Source: a virus. Taken from it: a DNA stretch of 64,000 nt. Where the stretch lies: positions 1-64,000 of IMG/VR virus record IMGVR_UViG_3300043449_002510; one strand, written 5' to 3'. This document shows, one piece after another, positions 4,814 through 45,538 of the stretch. The position numbers were made by a program, and so were the translations under genes. Below the pieces are notes generated by a model. The model saw only the letters and a list, made by a program, of their open reading frames with translations. It was not told the DNA's origin and made no database searches. Every line of letters begins with the position of its first letter. Position 1 is the stretch's first letter.

Positions 4814-5494
4814 ATGTCCAAAATTAAACGCCCAAAATTTGAAGACTGTTTAGATTTAATAAATATAGAAATAAATAAAAGAAAATCAAAATGGAATTTG
4901 TCTTCCATTGCTTGGATGGACTTTGATGATGTTTCTCAAATTATTAGATTTCATATACATCAAAAGTGGAAGCAATACAATCCTGAAAAACCATTACAAC
5001 CATGGGTTAGCATAATAATAACTAATCAGTTAAGAAATTTAATAAGAAATCATTATACAAATTATGCTAGACCATGTTTAAGATGTGATGCCGCTATTGA
5101 TAGTGATGGTTGCAAAATTTATAAAGAACAATGCGAATCTTGTCCACTTTATTCTCATTGGAAAAAACATAAACAACCTGCTACTTTTGTAAAACTTCCC
5201 GTTTCAATAGAAAATCACAATTATGAAGTTCATAGCATAGAAGACAATCATTCATATGGAGCAGAAGATATTCAAAAACTTCATGATATAATGAAAAAAA
5301 TATTAAAACCAATAGAATATCAAGTTTACAAAGGTTTATATATTGACCATTTGGATGAAGCTGCCGTTGCTAAAAAATTAGGTTTTATTTCAAATGAAAA
5401 AGGAAGGTCTCCCGGCTATAGACAAATTAAAAATATAACTAAATCAATAATCATAAAAGCAAAAACTTATATAGAAAAAGAAGGTTTAGATTAA
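4814..5494 (+). CDS. Sigma-70-like factor with Cys-rich insert
   Basis: 226 residues. Residues 36-80 resemble sigma region 2: an acidic DFDDVSQ segment, then KPLQPWVSIIITNQLRNLIRN, like the core-binding and -10 helices of phage late sigma factors such as T4 gp55. Residues 88-115 insert a probable zinc site (C-L-R-C, then C and C-x2-C-P-L-Y). The C-terminal part, LKPIEYQVY..LDEAAVAKKLG, looks like a region 4 helix-turn-helix. It is the obvious candidate to read the AGTGTA late motif. Tightly coupled to the genes on both sides (one-base gaps). The assignment rests on pattern recognition, so a structural check would be decisive. Confidence 0.6.
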   Translation: MSKIKRPKFEDCLDLINIEINKRKSKWNLSSIAWMDFDDVSQIIRFHIHQKWKQYNPEKPLQPWVSIIITNQLRNLIRNHYTNYARPCLRCDAAIDSDGCKIYKEQCESCPLYSHWKKHKQPATFVKLPVSIENHNYEVHSIEDNHSYGAEDIQKLHDIMKKILKPIEYQVYKGLYIDHLDEAAVAKKLGFISNEKGRSPGYRQIKNITKSIIIKAKTYIEKEGLD

Positions 5495-17550: not shown

Positions 17551-19395
17551 ATGTCTGCTGGCTTAAAATTGCAGGGTCAATTTAGATTTGATTTATATGA
17601 TATAAGCGGAAATTTATTAAAGAGTCATGACTATGTAAATAATTTCATAACTAATTCTGGATTAGTTTATCCTCTTCATTTCGCATTTGCAGACTGTTTT
17701 CGTTTTTTAAGCGTTGGGTCAGGAGATGCACAAAATTCAATAATTGACTTGGGAACAACTGGATTAGATATACCAATTCCAGAACTTTCTTATGTTGGAA
17801 GTAGAAACGACTTTTATAATTCTAATTCCACAAATTACGCTCCAGTTCCTTCTTGTGGTTATAGGTTTCCAAATTCAAACATCGTTGAATTATATAGAGG
17901 ATGGACTTTGCCAAATAATTCGGGGGGAGAAGATGGAGTATTTAAAACTGAAGGAACTTTTAAAGAATTTATGGTTACTCCCGGTAGACCATACGAAACT
18001 GGAGAGAATGGAGTAAAATATTGTTCCTGTAACGAACCTTTCCAAATAGGGAAAGATTGCTCTTCTATTGCTGATTATTATGTTTATGTAAGTAGTTTAA
18101 ATTCAAAAAGATTGAATATTTGCGATGCGACAAATGCATTTGCAAGAGTTGTTTTAAATGATCCAATTAATTATGTTTCAGGAAGTGTTTTAAATGTAAC
18201 TTATAAATTAACTATATCTATAAACACTGGTTTACGTTATCAAGAAATGTATTATTCTAATCCTGGATCAGAAAATTTTAATGGAAATTGGAGTCTTGTA
18301 CAAGGAATAACTCAACCCGGAATAAAATTAATAAATGACGGATTTATAAATAGCAAACAGCCATACGCTCCAAATAATCAGTTAAGATTACAACATTTCA
18401 AATATGATAATTCAAGTTATGTGTATGATTTTACAAAGGAATATGGAGAATCTTTTATTCCTGCTCATGGAATTCCATTAGAGCCCTCTATTCATAATTT
18501 TCCAGAAGCCAACGAAAATGGAATTAACTCTTTTCATAGTATAGTTTATTATTTTTCTCAAGATAATATCCAATTTTTAGTTTCAGAAAGCGGTGGAAAA
18601 TTTAATCAAACAGGAGAATTTGCCCCTTGGAATATCTATTCGTCTGGAAAAATTTATTCTTCTGGAGATTATGCTTATACTGGAAATCTCACATACAAAT
18701 ATATAAATCAAACTTCTGCATCTGGAATTCCATTTGAAAGTGGAACACATTGGGAAAATTTAGGATATTTAAAAGTGATTTCTGTTTTAAATAGTGGAAT
18801 AAAAAAATACAAAAATGACACAGAAAAAGCTTTATCTGATTCATATTTATATTGGTATAACAATCCAAGCGAATTTAACATTAGATATAATAATAAAAAA
18901 ATACCTTATTTTGAAAACGTTTTACAAGAAGTTAATTTTTCAAATTCTCCCGCAAGGAATTTCAGCAGAGGTGGAGTTTTAACTGGTTTTAATGTAAGCG
19001 AAAGAACTGTTGTTTTAAACAGGGCAATTAACTTTTTCCAATATCCTTTTGCTCAAGATTTTTATATTAAAAGTTTCGTGGCGGCTTACAGAGATGCACC
19101 AATTGGAGTAAACAATGGTTATGGTGGCGGAGATAGCGGTAATTTTATACCGTTTTTAGATTGTATATTTTCAGGAAGTGGAGAAAATATTTTTATTCCA
19201 CAAGTTATAACTGGTCAGAAAGATTATGATCCAGATTTCGAAGTATATAATGATACTGGCGCTTTTATTTCAGGATCAAATAGTAATGAATATTTTTATT
19301 TAAATTCCAATATTCCAAAATATCCAATATTAACTCCTACATTAAAATGGAGTTCAAATTGTCCTTCAAGTGTATTAGGATGTCCTTCTTCATAA
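17551..19395 (+). CDS. Virion protein, shorter paralogue
   Basis: 614 residues; shares the N-terminal domain and GWT motif of the 924-residue upstream protein and then diverges. It holds several Cys pairs unusual for this window (CSCNEP, DCSS, and a C-terminal SNCPSSVLGCPSS). A Cys-rich end in a virion protein could bind metal or form disulfides outside the cell. The gene follows its paralogue after four bases, consistent with tandem duplication and divergence. Function unknown. Confidence 0.65.
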   Translation: MSAGLKLQGQFRFDLYDISGNLLKSHDYVNNFITNSGLVYPLHFAFADCFRFLSVGSGDAQNSIIDLGTTGLDIPIPELSYVGSRNDFYNSNSTNYAPVPSCGYRFPNSNIVELYRGWTLPNNSGGEDGVFKTEGTFKEFMVTPGRPYETGENGVKYCSCNEPFQIGKDCSSIADYYVYVSSLNSKRLNICDATNAFARVVLNDPINYVSGSVLNVTYKLTISINTGLRYQEMYYSNPGSENFNGNWSLVQGITQPGIKLINDGFINSKQPYAPNNQLRLQHFKYDNSSYVYDFTKEYGESFIPAHGIPLEPSIHNFPEANENGINSFHSIVYYFSQDNIQFLVSESGGKFNQTGEFAPWNIYSSGKIYSSGDYAYTGNLTYKYINQTSASGIPFESGTHWENLGYLKVISVLNSGIKKYKNDTEKALSDSYLYWYNNPSEFNIRYNNKKIPYFENVLQEVNFSNSPARNFSRGGVLTGFNVSERTVVLNRAINFFQYPFAQDFYIKSFVAAYRDAPIGVNNGYGGGDSGNFIPFLDCIFSGSGENIFIPQVITGQKDYDPDFEVYNDTGAFISGSNSNEYFYLNSNIPKYPILTPTLKWSSNCPSSVLGCPSS

Positions 19396-19430
19396 TTTAA
19401 ATTTTAAGTGTAATTATATTAAATTATGAA
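19389..19430 (+). promoter_or_regulatory. Late promoter inside a 12-bp perfect inverted repeat over a start codon
   Basis: AGTGTAATTATA (19407-19418) is flanked by TTCATAATTTAA (19389-19400) and its exact complement TTAAATTATGAA (19419-19430), which contains the ATG of the protease-scaffold gene. Read-through RNA can hide the start codon; RNA begun at the promoter lacks the left arm. Confidence 0.65.
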
Positions 19431-21575: not shown

Positions 21576-22766
21576 ATGGAAATCAAATTAAAAAATACAC
21601 CAGAGCAAGTAGAGCTTATCAAGGCAATGGGTTCAAAGAACTCTGCCGTTGCCCGTGAAGCTACTGAAGCAATTGCCGCTTTCTTAGCGCCAGTTGTCAA
21701 GAAAGTTCTTTTAACTGCTGGAACAGCCTCCACAGTTTATCGCGATGTTGAATTCGATGAGGATTCTGATCCTTCGATTCCACTCGATCTTTTCTACAAT
21801 GAAGGAGCTGGATATGTTACCGTTTGGAGCCAAACCCAAGCTGGTGGACTTCCAACTTCGCAAGTAGAAGGCATGAAGGAAGTTAAGTTCGGTACTTACC
21901 GCCTTGACTCTGCCGTTTCTTTCAACAAAAAGTATGCTCGTAAGAGCCGCCTCGATGTTGTAAGCAAAGCTATTGAGCGTATGGTTAACGAAGTTCTCGT
22001 TAAGCAAGAGCGCAATGCTTGGGCAGTTATTCTCAAGGCTCTTGCCGAAGCTTCTACTCCAATTTATGCTGGTGCCGCTGGAACTACTGCCGCAACTTAT
22101 CAACATACAATCAACTCTGTTGCTTTAAAGAAGTTCCTTTTACAAGATTTAAATAATCTTATTGTTCGTATTAAGAGAATTAATGAATCTTACTCTGGAA
22201 ACACCCCAATTCAACCATATTCTCATGGTATTACTGATTTGTATGTTTCTCCAGAAGTTAAGGCTCAAATTCGCGCTTTTGCTTATAATCCAATTGCTAC
22301 TGATGGCAGTGCAGATAGTTTAGCAAAAACTCAATTCTTAAGTGATAATCTCCGTGATGAGATTTTCAAGAGCGCTGGTATGCAAAGCATTTATGGGGTT
22401 AATATCGTTGAATTAGTCGAATTTGGTCTTAGCCAAAAATATAATACTTTATTCGGTACATTCACAAATGCTACTAATCAAAATGGTGGATCAGGAGTAT
22501 ATGATACAGATCCTGGAGATGGTGGAAAATGGACAAGTACTTCAGGTTCTCAAATCTGTGTCGGTATTGATAATACTCGCGGAGCTTACGTTCGTCCAGT
22601 TGCTGTTCAAGCTGAGTCAGGTGGAACATTCTCTGTTCTTCCAGATGGTCAATTTGATATGTATGGATCCAGAGTCCAAAAGGTTGGATTCTACGGCTTC
22701 CTCGAAGAAGGTCGTGTTTGTTTAGATGCCCGTTCTACAGTCGGCATCATAATCAACGAAGCTTAA
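21576..22766 (+). CDS. Major capsid protein (HK97 fold)
   Basis: 396 residues, typical length. A helical N-arm (TPEQVELIKAMG) leads to DVEFDEDSDPSIPLDLF, an E-loop-like GLPTSQVEGMKEVKFGTYRL stretch, the long spine-helix candidate VVSKAIERMVNEVLVKQERNAWAVILKAL, and an A-domain ending in GRVCLDARSTVGIIIN. Placement after protease-scaffold and decoration genes, a strong ribosome binding site, and an efficient terminator directly downstream all fit the most abundant virion protein. The fold is inferred from layout, not from a search. Confidence 0.8.
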   Translation: MEIKLKNTPEQVELIKAMGSKNSAVAREATEAIAAFLAPVVKKVLLTAGTASTVYRDVEFDEDSDPSIPLDLFYNEGAGYVTVWSQTQAGGLPTSQVEGMKEVKFGTYRLDSAVSFNKKYARKSRLDVVSKAIERMVNEVLVKQERNAWAVILKALAEASTPIYAGAAGTTAATYQHTINSVALKKFLLQDLNNLIVRIKRINESYSGNTPIQPYSHGITDLYVSPEVKAQIRAFAYNPIATDGSADSLAKTQFLSDNLRDEIFKSAGMQSIYGVNIVELVEFGLSQKYNTLFGTFTNATNQNGGSGVYDTDPGDGGKWTSTSGSQICVGIDNTRGAYVRPVAVQAESGGTFSVLPDGQFDMYGSRVQKVGFYGFLEEGRVCLDARSTVGIIINEA

Positions 22767-22789
22767 TTATAAAATTAAAACATCGACAA

Positions 22790-22820
22790 ACGGGGAGCCT
22801 AAAAACTCCCCGTTTTTTTA
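22790..22820 (+). terminator. Intrinsic terminator after major capsid gene
   Basis: An 8-bp perfect GC-rich stem (ACGGGGAG / CTCCCCGT) with loop CCTAAAAA is followed by seven T. It closes the portal-to-capsid transcription unit. Confidence 0.92.
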
Positions 22821-22865
22821 TTTTCATTTTAAACAAAAACAACTATAATAAATAAAGGATAAAAT

Positions 22866-23219
22866 ATGCCCAAAAAGAAAAACCAAAAATTAAACTCTCT
22901 TTCTCAAACTCATGCCAAAGTTGAAACTAAAGAATTAACTTCTCTTGATCAGGTATGGGGATTTAATGAACTTTCAAGATATGGCACTCTTGATGAAAAT
23001 GAATATCAACAACGTCTCATAAATATGACTCGTTCAGATTTGGAAAATCATGCCCGCAGTATGGGCGCTCTTGTTGTGGAAAGTTCTGACAGATTAAGAG
23101 ATCTTCTTTTAAAACAATTTCGCGCTTATATTCTTTCTTTAAATAAGCCAGCTTCTCAAAATCCATCTAAAACTAAATTATCTCCAGAAGCCGAAAAAGT
23201 TTTACGAGAAGGTCGCTAA
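22866..23219 (+). CDS. Orphan small protein after the capsid gene
   Basis: 117 residues. A basic, Gln/Ser-rich N-terminus (PKKKNQKLNSLSQ) is followed by a helical domain, DQVWGFNELSRYGTLDENEY, then DLENHARSMGALVVESSDRLRDLLLKQF. The last part looks like a SAP- or Rho-N-like helix-extended-helix fold (L-x2-HARSMG-x6-S-x3-LRDLLLKQF), which would suggest nucleic-acid binding; that is inference. It lies between the capsid terminator and the first fibre gene, with a GGA site before the start but no AGTGTA motif. Confidence 0.5.
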   Translation: MPKKKNQKLNSLSQTHAKVETKELTSLDQVWGFNELSRYGTLDENEYQQRLINMTRSDLENHARSMGALVVESSDRLRDLLLKQFRAYILSLNKPASQNPSKTKLSPEAEKVLREGR

Positions 23220-23257
23220 TATTTATACTATTTTAGTGTAAATATAAAATATGGCGA
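23213..23257 (+). promoter_or_regulatory. Late promoter inside an imperfect inverted repeat over a start codon
   Basis: AGTGTAAATATA (23235-23246). Left arm TCGCTAATATTTATA (23213-23227) pairs with TATAAAATATGGCGA (23243-23257) over about 11 bp with one bulge. The right arm holds the ATG of the 23251 fibre gene. Confidence 0.5.
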
Positions 23258-26200
23258 CTTATGACAGTACAGTAAGGCTAAGGCAGTTAAATAAACCAGA
23301 ACTTTCAGGATATATAGTAGAAGTAATAGGAGAAATTCCTAATACTGGAAATTTAACTGGTTCATTTTATCCATTAAACTCTAATCCAAGTGGGTTTGTT
23401 ACAACTAGTCAAACTGGGGATTTTATAACTCAAATTGATTTAGATAGTAATTATTACAATACATTAGTTTATGTAGGTCAAAATTATTATCCATCAAATA
23501 ATCCAAGTGGATATGTCGCTAATTTATCTCCAATAGTTTATGCAACTGGAAATCAAACGATTTCTGGTGTTAAAAATTTTAATTCTCGCCCCCTTGTAAA
23601 TGGAGTCCCAGTTTTGATTTATGGAGAGGGTTCTGGATCCGGATCTCTTTCTGGAGCAGTTTTATTGGTAGGAGATCAAACAATTAGTGGAGTAAAAACA
23701 TTTGCAAATCAAGTCAATGTTTTAGGAAGTTTTGTCGTAGGAAATCAAATATTTGAAGTAGATAATGTAGGAAATGTATCAATTCTTGACACAGTAATTG
23801 ATCAAAATTCTTTTCAATTTACAAATGGATCATCTTTTAATATTTTAGGAATAAGTGGGACTTCAATACAACTTTATGAAAGTTTGATTACTGGATTTAA
23901 AAATATTTCAGCTACAAATATTTATAAAAGTGGATATCCAGTTATAGCCTCAAATCAATTGACTGGCGGAACTGGAATAAAAATAGAACAAATAAACAAT
24001 CTCATAAAAATTTCTGTAACTGGAATTCAAGGGGGTAGCACAGTTGTTTCAGGAATTCAAAACGTTGTCTATACAACTGGTCAACAGATAATAAGTGGAG
24101 CAAAAACTTTTGTTAATCAAATAAATATTCCTTCTTTAGATGAAAATTCAATGCTCATTGCTGTCCCTGGGGCTATTACTATTTATGATAGCACTTTAAG
24201 TAAAAATATTTTTGAATTTGATGAAATTGGTGAAAGCTTTAATCTTTTTGGAAAAGACTATACAGCAATTAAACTTTATGACAAAATAATTACAGGTTTT
24301 AATAATGTTTCATCAAAAGACATAGAAGTAACTGGAAATTTATATGTAAGCGGAAATATTATTGGAGGAAATGTTCAAAATGTCGTTTTTACAACTGGTC
24401 AACAAACGATAAGTGGTTATAAAACTTTTAATAGCGGAGCAAATTTCTTAACAGCACTTTATTACAACAGTAATCAAGTAGTTACTGGAAGTGTAGTGCG
24501 TCCGTCTGATATTTCTGATGTTGTATATTTAACTGGAGTTCAAACAATAACTGCGCAAAAGAACTTTTCTAATGGAGCTAATTTTTCTGGAAGGCTTCAA
24601 CTCAGTGGAAATTCAGTAATTACTGGTGCCGAAAATTTAGGGAATGGAGAAAAAATATTTACGGGAATAAATAGTAAAAGCGAAATAAAATTAAGAACTT
24701 TGAGGGCCGGTAGTGGAATAAGAATAACTGGAAATTCAAATGAATTATTTATTGATTTTACTGGATCATTTTCTGGTGAAATAGTTATTCCTCCTGTAGA
24801 AAATGTGGTTTATACAACAAATGTGAATCAAACAATTAGTGGAGAAAAAACTTTTGTTGGAAAATTAATCACCAATCAAATATATAATAATTCTTCTAAT
24901 TATGTTTATTCAAATTACATAGGAACAAATGCTGGAATTGGAGATATTTCGGCGACAAATTATAATTCAAATTATATTGGATATTATTCTGCAAATAATA
25001 ATTATGGAACAAATGATTACTCTAATATAATTGGTAACTTTGCAGGAGCAAATTCTTATTATTTAGATAATTCAAATTATATAGGAAATTATGCGGGATA
25101 TTATACATTTGAATGTTTTTATTCTAATTTTATAGGATCAAATGCTGGGGCAAATTCTGTAAGTTGTAATTTTTCTAATTTCATTGGAAATGATGCTGGT
25201 GTTAATGCTAACACTTGCCAGCTTTCAAATTTTATAGGATATAGGGCTGGATATGATACAGATTTATCTGATCATTCTAATTTTATAGGAAGAGAAGCGG
25301 GAGTTAGTGCTGATCAAAGTAATGACTCTAATTTTATTGGAACTAAAGCCGGATATTTAGGATTAAATTCTTCAAAATCAAATTTTATAGGTTATAGTGC
25401 TGGAGAGTCTGCTTTAAATGCAAAAAATAGCATCTTTATAGGAACAAATGCTGGATACAGCAATAATTTAAATAATGGAGAAAATGATTTTTCGATATTA
25501 ATTGGTAATTATACAAGCGGCAAGAAAAATAGTATTGCAATAGGTCAAGGTGCAGCTAATAGTTATGAAAAACAATTAAACATTGGAAATGTCATATATG
25601 CTAGTGGAATAAATACTGGAATAAATCCATCTTCTTCTCCAGCTTTAGGAAGAGTTGGCGTTCTAGTTGAAAGTCCACTTTATACTTTAGATGTTAATGG
25701 TTCTGGAAATTTTAGAAGCGGACTTTTTGTTAGTGGAATTTCGGTATTAACTGGAATAAATACTAGTTCATTTATAACTACAAGTCAAACTGGTAATTTT
25801 GTAAATCTTAATACTTCGCAAGTTATAAGCGGAATTAAAACATTTTTAACGGGAGTTGTTGTAAGCGGAGTCTTATCTGGAAAAAATATTATTAGTGAGA
25901 ATCGGGGATATGGTGCTGGAATTTACACATTCCAAAAAGAATTATCATCAAATACTAGTGGAGATATTTTTAAAATTGAAAATCTTGGTATTGATTATTC
26001 TAGTATAGTATGTGATGTAATGATTAATTCTTCATGGTATGTTGGCAAAAAATATTCAGTTATATATAATCCGTTAAACTTAGATGGTCCTGCTACATCT
26101 TCTTTGACTTTAAATAATGGCCCAATCACAAGCATTGGTTATACACATGATTTTGATGTAAAATTTCAAGGACTATACGCCGGAAATGGGTTTAAAATGA

Positions 26201-26301
26201 ATATAAAAAATACCGGTAATTATCCTCAACCAACAAATTATTTGATTACATTATTTTTGGGAGGTATTTACGACAGATTAAATGTAACAGATTATTCTTA
26301 A
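23251..26301 (+). CDS. Modular trimeric tail fibre
   Basis: 1016 residues. The N-terminal PELSGYI (16-22) matches the 9419 fibre. The body has seven or so copies of a VVYTTGxQTISGxKTF-type module, each opening a repeat domain, then (about residues 553-740) ten degenerate copies of an SNFIGxxAG repeat, and an LDVNGSGNF segment typical of phage fibres ahead of the tip. The last 140 residues form a separate beta domain. Such repeats form trimeric beta-rolls related in style to YadA-like heads. Likely a host-contacting side or tail fibre. Confidence 0.7.
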   Translation: MATYDSTVRLRQLNKPELSGYIVEVIGEIPNTGNLTGSFYPLNSNPSGFVTTSQTGDFITQIDLDSNYYNTLVYVGQNYYPSNNPSGYVANLSPIVYATGNQTISGVKNFNSRPLVNGVPVLIYGEGSGSGSLSGAVLLVGDQTISGVKTFANQVNVLGSFVVGNQIFEVDNVGNVSILDTVIDQNSFQFTNGSSFNILGISGTSIQLYESLITGFKNISATNIYKSGYPVIASNQLTGGTGIKIEQINNLIKISVTGIQGGSTVVSGIQNVVYTTGQQIISGAKTFVNQINIPSLDENSMLIAVPGAITIYDSTLSKNIFEFDEIGESFNLFGKDYTAIKLYDKIITGFNNVSSKDIEVTGNLYVSGNIIGGNVQNVVFTTGQQTISGYKTFNSGANFLTALYYNSNQVVTGSVVRPSDISDVVYLTGVQTITAQKNFSNGANFSGRLQLSGNSVITGAENLGNGEKIFTGINSKSEIKLRTLRAGSGIRITGNSNELFIDFTGSFSGEIVIPPVENVVYTTNVNQTISGEKTFVGKLITNQIYNNSSNYVYSNYIGTNAGIGDISATNYNSNYIGYYSANNNYGTNDYSNIIGNFAGANSYYLDNSNYIGNYAGYYTFECFYSNFIGSNAGANSVSCNFSNFIGNDAGVNANTCQLSNFIGYRAGYDTDLSDHSNFIGREAGVSADQSNDSNFIGTKAGYLGLNSSKSNFIGYSAGESALNAKNSIFIGTNAGYSNNLNNGENDFSILIGNYTSGKKNSIAIGQGAANSYEKQLNIGNVIYASGINTGINPSSSPALGRVGVLVESPLYTLDVNGSGNFRSGLFVSGISVLTGINTSSFITTSQTGNFVNLNTSQVISGIKTFLTGVVVSGVLSGKNIISENRGYGAGIYTFQKELSSNTSGDIFKIENLGIDYSSIVCDVMINSSWYVGKKYSVIYNPLNLDGPATSSLTLNNGPITSIGYTHDFDVKFQGLYAGNGFKMNIKNTGNYPQPTNYLITLFLGGIYDRLNVTDYS
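24910..25460 (+). repeat. Coding repeat, SNFIGxxAG type, about 10 copies
   Basis: Degenerate version of the 51-bp repeat in the 32655 fibre (SNYIGNYAG, SNFIGSNAG, SNFIGREAG, IFIGTNAG). Copies have diverged more here, suggesting an older expansion. Confidence 0.75.
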
Positions 26302-26341
26302 AATAAAAATATATTTTCGTTTGTTTTTTTATAAAATATAT

Positions 26342-26353
26342 AGTGTAATTAAA
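26342..26353 (+). promoter_or_regulatory. Putative late promoter AGTGTAATTAAA
   Basis: Five bases before the next ATG. A 9-bp AT-only inverted repeat (ATATATTTT at 26309, AAAATATAT at 26352) also reaches the start codon, but its sequence is too simple to weigh heavily. Confidence 0.55.
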
Positions 26354-26358
26354 AATAT

Positions 26359-26613
26359 ATGAATATTGAATCAAAAACAATAACAGACTCAAGAACAATA
26401 AACATGACTTTCACTTTAAATACTTTGAGTGATTTTCATGTAACTAGCGACGATCCCTTTAGGAAGATTTTAAGAGTCTCTCTTAGCGAAGCTAACCCTC
26501 CCCAACAAGTATCAGTCACAGGTAATGATTATGATACCCTCGGCCAATGGACTGATCAATCATTAAACGACTATTTAATAAACAAGTATGGATTAGTTGT
26601 AATTAATCCATAA
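26359..26613 (+). CDS. Small orphan virion-region protein, 84 aa
   Basis: Begins MNIESKTITDSRTINMTF; predicted mostly beta (TFTLNTLSDFHVTSDD, ILRVSLSEA) with a helical end (WTDQSLNDYLINKYG). No family recognised. It stands alone between a fibre gene and an Ig-like tail gene, with a late-type motif of its own. A small tail-tip or fibre-associated protein is possible. Confidence 0.55.
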   Translation: MNIESKTITDSRTINMTFTLNTLSDFHVTSDDPFRKILRVSLSEANPPQQVSVTGNDYDTLGQWTDQSLNDYLINKYGLVVINP

Positions 26614-26636
26614 TCTTAATAAAAAAATAAACAGTA

Positions 26637-26678
26637 ATATACGTTTGCCGTGTAATTATATATATGGCAAACGTATAT
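26637..26678 (+). promoter_or_regulatory. Late promoter inside a 13-bp perfect hairpin over a start codon
   Basis: ATATACGTTTGCC (26637-26649) and its exact complement GGCAAACGTATAT (26666-26678) flank GTGTAATTATATATAT. The right arm begins at the G of the ATG of the 26664 gene. Best case of the late-promoter hairpin layout, with GC pairs in the stem. Confidence 0.75.
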
Positions 26679-27005
26679 GATATTTCTATAGAGCAGGGGT
26701 CTAGTTTTAACTTAACTTTAACTGCTAAAGATTCCAATGGAACACCTCTTAATCTTAGTGGTTATAATGCTAGAGGATGGATGAAGTATGGATATGGTTC
26801 TACCGGATATCTTATAAATTTAAATCCAATTGTTCATCCGAGTTATATTAGTGGTTTAATAACAGTTTCTCTTTCAGCTTCTGGGACTTCATCTTTGCCA
26901 GTTACAAAAGCTGTATATGATATTGAAGTATATAACGAAAATAATTATACATTCAAAGCGATAAGAGGATACGCAAACATAATTCCAGAAGTAACCAATT
27001 TCTAA
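26664..27005 (+). CDS. Beta-sandwich tail/baseplate protein
   Basis: 113 residues, beta-rich. It begins MANVYDISIEQGSSFNLTLT and continues KDSNGTPLNLSGYNARGWM, a pattern common to small Ig-like phage tail proteins of T4-like and cyanophages (QG-x-x-F-x-LTLT then LxGYxARG). It ends with VYDIEVYNENNYTFKAIRGYANIIPEV. Likely an attachment or capping domain in the fibre assembly. The start codon is inside a hairpin carrying the late motif; the first five codons form its right arm. Confidence 0.6.
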   Translation: MANVYDISIEQGSSFNLTLTAKDSNGTPLNLSGYNARGWMKYGYGSTGYLINLNPIVHPSYISGLITVSLSASGTSSLPVTKAVYDIEVYNENNYTFKAIRGYANIIPEVTNF

Positions 27006-27009
27006 AATT

Positions 27010-28698
27010 ATGCCAGATATTGAAGTAACAGTAACAACAACTCCTATTGATGTATATATCAATAGTGATCCTACTGTTTATATTGATACTGCTAATCAAG
27101 GGATACAGGGGCCTGCTGGTCCCACTGGCGATTTTGTATTAAAGTCTGAGACGGGAATTTTTGTTAATAAATCAGAAACAGGATTATTTTATCCTGCAAG
27201 TAATCCAAGCGGTTTTGTTCCAAGTAGCCAGCCAATATTTGAAATTAGGCCTCAAGTAGAACAAGGAGGCGGAGAGTTATTAGGTTTAGCTTATGTTACT
27301 GAGGTTGGAGATAAATTACCAATTGCTACATATCCATCAGAAGTAGTAAAATGGAATGGTACAGAATGGATATCTCAAAAAATAGACTATTCAGAAATAG
27401 AAAATCCTCCAGTAATTCCTCCTGACAGATTACCTTTAACAGCGAATGATGGAGATGCTTTATTCTGGGATAATTCTTTTGAGATTTGGACGAATCGACC
27501 AGTAACAACTGGAGATGTAAATGGTTTAAATACTTTATTAGGAAATTATTTTCAAATTGGTGGTGATTCAAAAGGTCAATCTTTAATTTTAGGAACAAAT
27601 GATCCTTATGATTTAAATTTTGAAACAAGTGGTACAACTAAAATGTCCATTTCTAAAAATGGACTTGTAACAGTTGGTGGCACAGGTTCTCAAAGAATTT
27701 ATATTGATACAACTATAGATGGATCTCCACAAATTAGATGGTCTGGCTCAATACCAAATAAAGGCTCAAGATTAACTTCGAAAGATGGCGGCGGTTATTG
27801 GGTAACCTTAGATCGCGTCGATGGATCTGCAGAAAATTTAAATGTAGCTGGTAATCTTCAGGTTGGTTCTGGTTCTGGAATACAAGCTCAAAGACTTTAT
27901 GTTCGTGGTAACGCTTTAATCACCAACGATTTAACAGTAAACACAAGTGGAAATTTTCTTAGTGGTCTTTTTGTCAATAGGATTCCTGTTTTAACTGGAA
28001 CAAGCGGCACTCAATCTCAAATCAATAATTTATCAATAAGTCTCTCTGGAGCTTATGTTACTTTAGGAACAAATCAAACAATTTCTGGCGACAAAACTTT
28101 TGTCAATGCTTTAATCCTTCAATCTCAAGCAACTGGAAATAATCAAGCTGTAAGAGCAGACAGAAACATTTTTGCTGGCAGCGGTTTAGTTGGAGGCGGA
28201 GATTTAACAACAGATAGAACATTTGATATAGGTCAAGGTTATGGAATATCTGTTTTAAATGATTCTATTGCAGTTAATACGAATGACGTTGTAGTAACTG
28301 CGGGTTATCAACAAATTTATGGTAATAAAGTCTTTGAAGATCAAGCAAATTTTAATTCAACACTAAATGTAGGTTATGTAGATTTGCAAGCTAGTTATAC
28401 ATTAATGGCTGGACCAAGTCAATTTTATATAGCAGATTATGCTAACGAAAAATATGCATTAAAATTTGTTGATGGTACATTTTTTAATTTAAATGGTAAT
28501 GGATCAACTCAAATTAGATTTTATGAAAGCGGCGCTTCTGGATCTTTAATTACTGGTTTTGACAATATTTCTGCTACAAATTTACAAATTAATGGAGATG
28601 GTAATTTTTCCAATAATTTATATATTAATAACTCAAGAGTAGCCACAGAAGCTGAATTAACTAAAAAAATGATAGCTTTTGCCATTGCTTTAGGTTAA
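27010..28698 (+). CDS. Tail fibre with short collagenous and TISG modules
   Basis: 562 residues. An N-terminal beta segment (IEVTVTTTPIDVYINSD) is followed by a short collagen run QGIQGPAGPTG, a NPSGFVPSSQP segment also seen in the 23251 fibre, and two modules of the NQTISGDKTF class. The C-terminus has the FYESGASGSLITGFDNISATNL block shared with the 23251 and 32655 fibres. It starts four bases after the Ig-like gene. A fibre subunit built from the same modules as its neighbours. Confidence 0.65.
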   Translation: MPDIEVTVTTTPIDVYINSDPTVYIDTANQGIQGPAGPTGDFVLKSETGIFVNKSETGLFYPASNPSGFVPSSQPIFEIRPQVEQGGGELLGLAYVTEVGDKLPIATYPSEVVKWNGTEWISQKIDYSEIENPPVIPPDRLPLTANDGDALFWDNSFEIWTNRPVTTGDVNGLNTLLGNYFQIGGDSKGQSLILGTNDPYDLNFETSGTTKMSISKNGLVTVGGTGSQRIYIDTTIDGSPQIRWSGSIPNKGSRLTSKDGGGYWVTLDRVDGSAENLNVAGNLQVGSGSGIQAQRLYVRGNALITNDLTVNTSGNFLSGLFVNRIPVLTGTSGTQSQINNLSISLSGAYVTLGTNQTISGDKTFVNALILQSQATGNNQAVRADRNIFAGSGLVGGGDLTTDRTFDIGQGYGISVLNDSIAVNTNDVVVTAGYQQIYGNKVFEDQANFNSTLNVGYVDLQASYTLMAGPSQFYIADYANEKYALKFVDGTFFNLNGNGSTQIRFYESGASGSLITGFDNISATNLQINGDGNFSNNLYINNSRVATEAELTKKMIAFAIALG

Positions 28699-28709
28699 GT
28701 GTATTTATA
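28698..28709 (+). promoter_or_regulatory. Putative late promoter AGTGTATTTATA
   Basis: Its first base is the last base of the upstream stop codon. TTG start 19 bases downstream. Confidence 0.6.
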
Positions 28710-28728
28710 ATAAAATAAGAAGAAAAAA

Positions 28729-29307
28729 TTGAAAACATTAATAACAGGTTATTTTTTTAATGCCACGGGCCAAAAGGTTATTCTCACTGATTATCCACAA
28801 GTGAGTCTGGAAAGCCTTTTATTAATTACCAATGTAACAAACAATCAAATAATATATAATTTTGCAGATCCATTGGCGGGGGGCTCAGTATCTGGAAATT
28901 CAATTACTCTAGATTATAATACTTCTGGAATGAATAATTCTGATTGTTTGCAGATTTATTATGATACCCCCTATACTCCAGCAACTAATGAAACTTTAAA
29001 TATAATGAGCGGCCAGCTTCAAGCATTGCAAGAACAAAATCTTTTAATGCGTAGAATGCTAAAAGTCACTGAATCTTTATCAATTATTGATACCAACCAA
29101 AGACAAAGGGTTAATATTGATTCATGGGGATTGGGTGGAGGTACTACTTTGGGAAATGTAATTCCAAGAGATGCTGGTAATACAGCAGTAAATAATATTA
29201 ACGGAAATTCTTTTACTTCATCTTTTGCAGCCCCAGATGTTTGGAGAACAATCGATATAGCCAGAAATACTTATCAAAACGCTATAAGAAACAATTTACT
29301 ATTTTAA
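28729..29307 (+). CDS. Virion-region protein with TTG start
   Basis: 192 residues from a TTG (MKTLITGYFFNATGQK); an AAGAAG run lies nearby but there is no clear Shine-Dalgarno site, and no ATG nearby preserves the conserved-looking N-terminal beta region. Residues 90-115 form a probable coiled coil (MSGQLQALQEQNLLMRRML), and the end has a WRTIDIARNTYQNAIRNN helix. No family recognised. Precedes a large beta-repeat tail protein after 15 bases; possibly its partner. Confidence 0.55.
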   Translation: MKTLITGYFFNATGQKVILTDYPQVSLESLLLITNVTNNQIIYNFADPLAGGSVSGNSITLDYNTSGMNNSDCLQIYYDTPYTPATNETLNIMSGQLQALQEQNLLMRRMLKVTESLSIIDTNQRQRVNIDSWGLGGGTTLGNVIPRDAGNTAVNNINGNSFTSSFAAPDVWRTIDIARNTYQNAIRNNLLF

Positions 29308-43663: not shown

Positions 43664-45505
43664 ATGCCGCGCCACATAATTGATTCAGGAATTCAGTTCA
43701 TTAATGCCATAAATACATCAGGGGTTCCCTTGACTATTTCTGGCGTTAGTGGACAGAGTTCCAATTTGCTTAGAACAATAAACGGCGCAGATGGATCAGT
43801 TTTAACTTCTTTAAGAAGCAATGGATATGTTGGCTCAAAAGGTTTAAAAATAACAAATGATTCAAATGCTGATATAATAACTCTTTCATTATATAATAAT
43901 TATGGATTAATGGTTGATTGTTACGGTGGTCAAACATTTTTTAGCAATTCAAATGGAACAATAGTAACATTAGGTGGTTATATAGGTGGAACAACTAATG
44001 GATACTTTGCATTAGGAGCAACTACCTTAAATAATAGTGTTAATGCTGGTCAAGACACGATTTTTTATCGTGACGCCGCTGGAATATTCGCCCAAAGAAA
44101 TGGTGTAAATTCTCAAACTTTTAGAGTTTATAATACTTATTCAACAACTGGCAATTTTGAAAGAGGCAAAATAGGTTGGAACAACAACGCTTTTGAAATT
44201 GGAACCGAACAAGGTACAACTGGTGGAGTTGCAAGAGATTTGCGCTTTTTAACTAGCGGCTCTGGAAGAATGACGATTACTAGTGGCGGAAATGTAGGAA
44301 TAGGTACAATTAATCCTACAGCTAATTTAGATGTAGATGGTAGTGTAAAAATTGCTAGCGCCAGAAATAATCAATTTCCTCTTTCTATTTACGGAGGTAA
44401 TAGTTCCGCTCAAGCGTGTCATATAATATTGTACAACAATGTTCCTGTTGGAGTTATTAAAGCAGGTGGCAATGGTACAGTTGGGCAAGGATTCGCTAAT
44501 TCAAGTTATAATTACCAACTTTTTGTTAGATGGTCAGATGGTAATGTTGGAATAAATACAACATCACCAAATTATACTTTAGATGTCAATGGCTCTGGAA
44601 TTTTCCAAAGTGGTTTATCAGTTAGCGGTCAAATCATAACAAATCAACGTCCATTAATAAATGGCACCCCAGTTCTTCTCAGCGGAGAGGGCGGCGGAGC
44701 TACTCCAGCAAATTTAGTTTATACAACTGGTACCCAAACAATAGCTGGAGAAAAAACTTTCAGTAATAAAGCCAATTTTTATTCTGGTTTTTCTGTTGGT
44801 AATAATTATTTAAACGCTGACTTTAATAGTTTCGAAATTTTCGATGATCCAAATTTCCTTACTGTAATGAAGTATGCTGAAAATACTGAATTTTATTTTG
44901 AAGGGCCATCTGGAGCAAAAGTTGATGTATGGAATAGCAATGTTTCTAATTTTGATAAAATTTCTTCAAATTTAATTTCTGGCACTAACCTCAGTTTAGA
45001 AAGTGGAATTAAATTTAACGGAGGCATTTCTAATAAAAGCTTCGAGATCTATAAAGATGACAAAACTTACAATTTTAGCATGGGGCCTACTGGAACTTGG
45101 GGCGCTTTTGGTTCAACTTTAATTTCTTTAACTAGTGGTGGCCCAAACATTAGTAATAATTTTACTCCATCTTTTAAATTAATAGATCAATCAAATTCTC
45201 AATTTTTTGAAATTGGTGGATATTCTGATGATGAACAATATGGTTCATTTAGCACTTTTAGAATGGGGAGCGAGGGGCTTGGATATTGGAGTGCAGGTGG
45301 TGGAATTTTTGCTGTAAGAGGAACAAATGTAGGTATAGGTACTGCTTATCCTGGTCATAAATTAGATGTAGATGGTAATATTAATGCCACTAGTTTTTCT
45401 TCAAGTGGAAACGCAGGAATGACAACTTCCGTCTCTGTTATAGATAATAGCAACAATGTAATTACATTAAACTTTGAGAACGGATTACTTATATCAATAA
45501 CTTAA
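43664..45505 (+). CDS. Modular tail fibre, 613 aa
   Basis: Begins MPRHIIDSGIQFINAINTSG. Contains VPLTISGVSGQSSNLLRTING, an RNGVNSQTFRVYNTYSTTG domain and a NQRPLINGTPVLLSGEG block, all close to blocks in the 32655 fibre; then NLVYTTGTQTIAGEKTF. LDVNGSG and LDVDGNI segments flank the end, and the C-terminus is a short NNVITLNFENGLLISIT strand. Fibre subunit of the same family; exchange of modules with 32655 looks likely. Confidence 0.7.
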   Translation: MPRHIIDSGIQFINAINTSGVPLTISGVSGQSSNLLRTINGADGSVLTSLRSNGYVGSKGLKITNDSNADIITLSLYNNYGLMVDCYGGQTFFSNSNGTIVTLGGYIGGTTNGYFALGATTLNNSVNAGQDTIFYRDAAGIFAQRNGVNSQTFRVYNTYSTTGNFERGKIGWNNNAFEIGTEQGTTGGVARDLRFLTSGSGRMTITSGGNVGIGTINPTANLDVDGSVKIASARNNQFPLSIYGGNSSAQACHIILYNNVPVGVIKAGGNGTVGQGFANSSYNYQLFVRWSDGNVGINTTSPNYTLDVNGSGIFQSGLSVSGQIITNQRPLINGTPVLLSGEGGGATPANLVYTTGTQTIAGEKTFSNKANFYSGFSVGNNYLNADFNSFEIFDDPNFLTVMKYAENTEFYFEGPSGAKVDVWNSNVSNFDKISSNLISGTNLSLESGIKFNGGISNKSFEIYKDDKTYNFSMGPTGTWGAFGSTLISLTSGGPNISNNFTPSFKLIDQSNSQFFEIGGYSDDEQYGSFSTFRMGSEGLGYWSAGGGIFAVRGTNVGIGTAYPGHKLDVDGNINATSFSSSGNAGMTTSVSVIDNSNNVITLNFENGLLISIT

Positions 45506-45538
45506 GTGTAATTATAAATATATGAAAGTTGTTGACAT
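45491..45538 (+). promoter_or_regulatory. Late promoter in the loop of a start-adjacent hairpin
   Basis: ATATCAATAACTT (45491-45503) pairs with AAGTTGTTGACAT (45526-45538) in 12 of 13 positions, one a G-T pair. AGTGTAATTATAAATA and the ATG of the 45522 gene sit in the loop, and codons 2-6 form the right arm. Confidence 0.55.

What the first reader, a model, noticed from the sequence alone, without database searches (positions are those of the whole stretch)
26637..26678. Late promoter motif sits inside a 13-bp perfect hairpin that covers a start codon
The left arm ends directly at GTGTAATTATA and the right arm starts at the G of the ATG, with four GC-type pairs in the stem core. RNA reading through from upstream would bury the start region; RNA begun at the late motif lacks the left arm and is free. 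T4 gene e (lysozyme) is known to be silenced in early transcripts and expressed from a late promoter by this same arrangement.
Basis: partly seen in the sequence, partly recalled or inferred. Interest (0 to 1): 0.8.

Follow-up and report, generated by a model that had tools for sequence, protein, structure and literature searches.

The report
Phage hairpin hiding a late start codon
In an uncultured bacterial virus, a promoter sits in the loop of a strong RNA hairpin that probably hides a structural gene's start codon in RNA read through from upstream but not in RNA begun at that promoter, a T4-like switch apparently combined here with mRNAs that start right at the start codon.

Summary
In detail: 13-bp perfect arms at 26637-26649 and 26666-26678 enclose GTGTAATTATATATAT and bury the ATG at 26664. 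It is the longest close perfect inverted repeat in the window; no arm of 13 bp or more with 5 or more GC pairs arose in 60 shuffles. GTGTAAT is a strand-biased motif directly before many structural-gene starts across a clade of uncultured phages that encode a conserved sigma-like protein. It lies 14 nt or more from the ATG and almost never with a Shine-Dalgarno, so these transcripts are probably leaderless and would lack the left arm. Computed cost of opening the start: 18.3 kcal/mol in read-through RNA, 1.2 in locally begun RNA. Near relatives keep the hairpin, and both synonymous changes seen in the right arm are matched in the left arm. Other lineages of the gene have unrelated-looking hairpins at the same place; many have none. 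The mechanism works like T4 genes e, soc and I-TevI, but the phage, promoter, sigma and gene differ. Transcription starts, timing and translation were not measured. I call it a new variant of a known kind.

The parts
26637..26649 (+). left arm of the hairpin (ATATACGTTTGCC), intergenic, begins 24 nt after the last base of the upstream stop codon
   Evidence: not in a + strand ORF of 40 aa or more
26650..26660 (+). promoter motif GTGTAATTATA (TGTAAT resembles a -10 hexamer), in the hairpin loop
26662..26664 (+). predicted transcription start, at or within about 2 nt of the A of ATG (inference from spacing)
   Evidence: motif-to-ATG distances never 13 and in the gene family most often 14; a single-element phage sigma starts RNA 6-8 bp downstream of its element in phiEco32
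26666..26678 (+). right arm (GGCAAACGTATAT), starts at the G of the ATG, codons 1-5
26664..27005 (+). regulated gene, 113 aa MANVYDISIEQG..., beside fibre-like genes
   Evidence: phrog_1084 E 2e-20 and phrog_3304 (L-shaped tail fiber protein assembly) E 4e-8
26343..26351 (+). upstream promoter motif whose transcript would read through the hairpin
26359..26613 (+). upstream 84-aa ORF; its stop leaves 23 nt before the left arm
22788..22815 (+). terminator-like hairpin with T run, the only convincing one found upstream in 22000-29000
19389..19430 (+). second case: 12-bp perfect arms 19389-19400 / 19419-19430 enclose the motif at 19408 and cover the ATG at 19426; left arm overlaps the upstream stop codon
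   Evidence: start-opening p 0.028
23211..23259 (+). weaker case at fibre gene 23251: 8 pairs around the motif at 23236; left arm overlaps the end of the upstream ORF
   Evidence: p 0.0033
45494..45535 (+). weaker case at gene 45522: 10 pairs (one G-U, read by eye) around the motif at 45506, covering codons 2-5
   Evidence: p 0.0033; pairing read from the sequence
4814..5494 (+). 226-aa sigma-70-like protein, candidate late sigma factor
   Evidence: Pfam Sigma70_r2 E 3.7e-5, 23.9 bits vs cut-off 24; TIGR02937 E 6e-7, below its cut-off; fold matches are mostly sigma factors, best E 0.012; conserved in relatives

Best explanation
A start-codon lock that depends on where the RNA began. RNA started upstream (for example at the motif at 26343) carries the left arm; it folds into a stem that includes the AUG and first codons, so the tail-fibre-adjacent gene is not translated from it. 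RNA started at the GTGTAAT promoter in the loop begins at or within about 2 nt of the AUG, lacks the left arm, leaves the start open, and is translated as a leaderless message. Shown by computation: the sequence, the fold, the motif's clade-wide position and strand bias, the pairing in relatives. Inferred: promoter function, the sigma-like protein at 4814-5494 as its reader, leaderless starts, late timing, translational silencing.
For: Opening the start costs 18.3 kcal/mol in read-through RNA and 1.2 in locally begun RNA, and 6.0 on average with the upstream 30 nt shuffled (p 0.0017, the smallest possible with 600 shuffles). Arms keep pairing in relatives: W/L001, L003/L004 (left G to A with right C to T, AAC to AAT) and L002 (left T to G with right A to C, GTA to GTC, plus a 2-nt left insertion); the left arms of W, L001, L002 and L003 each pair best, or equal best, with their own right arm. 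Across 28 left-arm clusters of the gene family own arms pair better than permuted arms (mean -4.93 vs -3.82, sd 0.32, 3 of 5000). After 80% collapse 12 of 41 family leaders bury the start at p<=0.05. In the window 4 of 8 motif-adjacent starts do so, against 2 of 32 other starts. Promoter and leaderless evidence: sense-strand bias 10 to 0; nothing at 13 nt, 51 of 81 family leaders at 14 nt; SD-like sequence at 2 of 105 motif-adjacent versus 367 of 1003 motif-free starts; sigma-like protein in 10 of 15 large related records.
Against: Nothing was measured: I know of no transcript ends, time course or translation data for this uncultured phage. The hairpin is missing in orthologues L005 and L006/L007, and 29 of 41 collapsed family leaders are not significant, so it is not essential to the gene. 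The recognised neighbours are structural, so why this gene must be kept off read-through RNA is unclear. L003 also has one left-arm change that breaks a pair. The low SD count is partly forced because the motif fills the SD position. The sigma assignment is below Pfam and NCBIfam cut-offs; the PDB sequence search found nothing.
Confidence: 0.7

Rival explanations
1. Mutational by-product: template switching between near-palindromic sequences at the promoter makes and repairs inverted repeats without selection on RNA.
For: Such copying would also yield matched changes (general knowledge); the hairpin is patchy in the family.
Against: Pairing recurs at the same place in lineages with unrelated arms, often imperfect with bulges and G-U pairs; other genes with the same promoter show only a weak excess (11 of 114 at p<=0.05).
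Confidence: 0.12
2. DNA operator: the arms are a palindromic site for a dimeric regulator that covers the promoter.
For: Promoter lies between two symmetric arms; T4 I-TevI binds over its own late promoter.
Against: Arm sequences differ between lineages and follow the coding sequence; L002 has a 2-nt insertion in one arm only, tolerable in RNA as a bulge but shifting a DNA half-site.
Confidence: 0.07
3. The hairpin is a terminator or a 3'-end/processing structure of the upstream 84-aa message.
For: The scan lists it as terminator-like, and it lies just after that gene.
Against: Tail GATATTTCTA is not a T run and is coding (YDIS); in relatives it changes with the codons. A far better terminator shape exists at 22788.
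Confidence: 0.08
4. Chance palindrome in an A+T-rich start region.
For: Many family members lack it; A+T-rich arms of 12 bp form elsewhere in the window.
Against: searches (shuffles; p 0.0017), matched changes in relatives, control starts.
Confidence: 0.03

Closest known systems
T4 gene e (lysozyme) start-codon occlusion, and T4 soc, 49, I-TevI (PMC3014915, passages read)
   Same: Longer upstream transcripts fold to hide the start; a late promoter inside the element makes RNA without the 5' arm, which is well translated (100-fold effect reported for e).
   Different: T4 hides SD and/or AUG and uses TATAAATA with gp55; here there is no SD to hide, the motif is GTGTAAT, RNA probably starts at the AUG, the gene is tail-fibre-adjacent, and the weak terminase matches are mostly to Bacillus phages.
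Homing endonuclease hairpins I-TevII, I-TevIII, segB, Aeh1 mobE (PMC2988022, passages read)
   Same: Same late-promoter-inside-hairpin plan on late genes in long polycistronic RNA.
   Different: Those are mobile endonuclease genes whose structure hides a ribosome binding site; no leaderless case in the passages read.
phiEco32 late promoters read by phage sigma gp36 (PMC8948821, passages read)
   Same: Phage sigma with a single-element promoter (tAATGTAtA); RNA starts 6-8 bp downstream.
   Different: Other motif; gp36 lacks region 4, whereas the model of this protein has parts matching both a sigma N-terminal domain and a -35-binding domain.

Membership tests
T4-type late-gene start occlusion | RNA stem that pairs the start codon region with upstream sequence | tested here: met
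T4-type late-gene start occlusion | promoter between the 5' arm and the start, so that local RNA lacks the 5' arm | tested here: inconclusive
   motif position and clade-wide spacing fit; start site not mapped
T4-type late-gene start occlusion | pairing kept in relatives | tested here: met
   L001, L002, L003/L004 keep it; L005, L006/L007 lack it, as some T4 relatives lack the e structure
T4-type late-gene start occlusion | reduced translation from upstream transcripts | not testable with these tools
   needs experiment
T4-type late-gene start occlusion | TATAAATA late promoter | tested here: not met
   motif is GTGTAATTATA; TATAAATA occurs 22 times on both strands against 13.0 expected in shuffles (mildly over-represented) but not at this start
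Sigma-70 family (protein 4814-5494) | passes a curated family cut-off | tested here: not met
   Sigma70_r2 23.9 vs 24 bits; TIGR02937 29.2 vs 42.9 bits
Sigma-70 family (protein 4814-5494) | region 2 and region 4 folds | tested here: inconclusive
   model pLDDT 70, pTM 0.38; top PDB matches are mostly sigma factors, none at E<=0.001, single-domain matches TMt 0.65 and 0.74
Leaderless mRNA | 5' end at the AUG | tested here: inconclusive
   spacing and SD statistics only

The most novel reading that the evidence does not exclude
A clade of uncultured phages runs a leaderless structural-gene regulon from a GTGTAAT promoter read by its own sigma-like factor, and the DNA just upstream of these promoters has repeatedly evolved to lock the AUG of read-through RNA, so that for some genes only RNA born at the AUG can be translated.
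Probability: 0.4. Interest if true: 0.78.

Novelty: new variant of a known kind. Interest (0 to 1): 0.6.

Why it matters
If true, the T4 lysozyme trick is not a T4 curiosity but evolved separately in an unrelated phage group, and is simpler there: with leaderless messages the same few bases serve as promoter loop, 5' end and start codon. It gives a sequence-only way to find genes that phages keep off read-through RNA, and a clean system to ask how leaderless and internal AUGs compete.

Tried and rejected
A loose pattern (GCCGTGTAA...ATGGC) returned 119 stretches, nearly all chance, but led to the second hairpin lineage (L029, L080). A profile search for the protein added no loci. A genome-contig scan found 0, so no host was assigned. 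The sigma-like protein and gene 45522 had no match in 50,697 phage records; terminase gave only weak matches, mostly Bacillus phages. Rfam: none. A paper search for the motif letters gave only unrelated papers in the 10 listed of 353. The arm test began the right region at the T of the ATG and so missed the 19408 case; searches replaced it. One search timed out; one search repeated it with fewer shuffles and without control starts from relatives, so the only motif-free control is the 32 window starts. In one search sixteen starts at 12 nt belong, by the prefixes printed, to one MK(T/N)MLxKxFG-type gene, judged mis-called (a second ATG lies at 21 nt).

Full report
What is there. Arms 26637-26649 and 26666-26678 are perfect 13-bp complements around a 16-nt loop that begins with GTGTAATTATA and ends with the AT of the start codon. 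The gene (26664-27005, 113 aa) matches phrog_1084 and, weaker, phrog_3304 (L-shaped tail fiber protein assembly) and lies among long fibre-like genes. The left arm is intergenic and starts 24 nt after the last base of the upstream stop codon, so a terminating ribosome would probably leave it free to fold (inference).

Is it chance? The fold beats all 200 shuffles. It is the longest perfect inverted repeat with a 3-30-nt loop in the window; 3 of 60 shuffled windows had any arm of 13 or more and 0 of 60 one as G-C rich. Unexpectedly, one of the three 12-bp repeats next in rank (19389-19430) also encloses this motif and covers a start codon, at 19426.

The motif. GTGTAATTA occurs 7 times in the window, always on the + strand. 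In the 124,148-base record the pattern GTGTAANT close to an ATG occurs 10 times forward and 0 reverse; most sites next to starts lie in the forward, structural part, with one at 88757 inside a mostly reverse block. SD-like sequence precedes 2 of 105 starts with the motif within 21 nt, 25 of 78 with the motif at 22-79 nt, and 367 of 1003 without it. The low first figure is partly forced, since the motif occupies the SD position; it still means that these starts have no SD. A phage sigma with a single-element promoter starts RNA 6-8 bp after its element (phiEco32, passages of PMC8948821). Together this points to RNA that begins at or within about 2 nt of the AUG. I did not map any 5' end.

Candidate reader. 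The 226-aa protein at 4814-5494 just misses the Pfam sigma region 2 cut-off and is below the NCBIfam cut-off. Its modest model (pLDDT 70, pTM 0.38) matches mostly sigma factors at the top of the PDB fold list, best E 0.012. It is present at 50-57% identity in 10 of 15 large related records; five, possibly fragments, gave no hit. Twenty loci were found in viral contigs and 16 proteins, the window's included, were aligned, with conserved cysteines.

Relatives. The protein search gave 9 loci. L001 has the same 13 bp. L003/L004: 12 of 13 pairs, with one matched change and one that breaks a pair. L002: 11 pairs around a 2-nt left insertion, with one matched change. Both changes inside the right arm are synonymous and both are matched on the left (pairs counted by eye). 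Swapping arms in silico weakens pairing: L002 -14.5 own against -10.8 with the window's right arm, L003 -12.6 against -8.2; only identical right arms tie. L005 and L006/L007 keep the motif without the arms; L008 lacks the motif; L009 is too distant.

Wider family. A pattern that requires motif and protein start but not the left arm returned 112 stretches; 97 distinct leaders were found in all loci then held, one of them with a truncated unrelated frame. A second lineage pairs TGTAGCC with GGCTACA, up to 14 pairs with a bulge (L140, L206). The first test, with a narrower right region, gave 11 of 95 family and 1 of 116 other sites at p<=0.01. With start-opening energy, raw counts at p<=0.05 were 30 of 93 family and 12 of 163 other sites; after 80% collapse 12 of 41 and 11 of 114. 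Own against permuted arms over 28 clusters: 3 of 5000 permutations as low; three clusters carry most of this. So the lock is specific to some lineages, not general.

Window-wide. Of 8 starts with the motif directly upstream, 4 (26664, 23251, 45522, 19426) are more buried than shuffled leaders at p<=0.05 (Fisher 1.4e-5; 4e-4 without 26664); of 32 other starts, 2 (Fisher 0.19). In the three weaker cases the left arm overlaps the end of the upstream ORF (read from coordinates), so upstream ribosomes may open it; only 26637-26678 is clear of this.

Comparison. T4 genes e, soc, 49 and I-TevI, and several homing endonucleases, use the same logic (passages of PMC3014915 and PMC2988022 read). It works like them. 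It is not a T4 late promoter, and the gene and phage are different. The AR9 paper remarks that phage transcripts are often leaderless (passage of PMC5312081), so leaderless RNA as such is not new; I saw no report of such a lock combined with leaderless late RNA in the searches (listings only, apart from the passages named).

Noticed in passing
1-2000: G+C is 0.51 here against about 0.3 in most of the window; a 46-bp tandem repeat lies at 1816-1922. Possibly foreign DNA or a join in the assembly.
   Followed up: partly
4814-5494: Conserved phage protein with sigma region 2 resemblance and five conserved cysteines (C88, C91, C100, C107, C110) in the middle, perhaps a zinc site; no match in 50,697 phage records.
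   Followed up: partly
L240:5555: A 9-bp perfect pairing AAGCTTCAT/ATGAAGCTT hides the start of a small hydrophobic protein behind a GTGTATTT site, opening cost 21.8 kcal/mol.
   Followed up: no
L172:851 and L283: The fibre gene MSAFDSTIRLRQ, similar at its start to the window gene at 23251, has its own start-hiding arms around the motif.
   Followed up: partly
L146, L199 and L006, just upstream of the motif: Some family members have a self-contained small hairpin before the motif (read by eye), perhaps another way to insulate the promoter.
   Followed up: no
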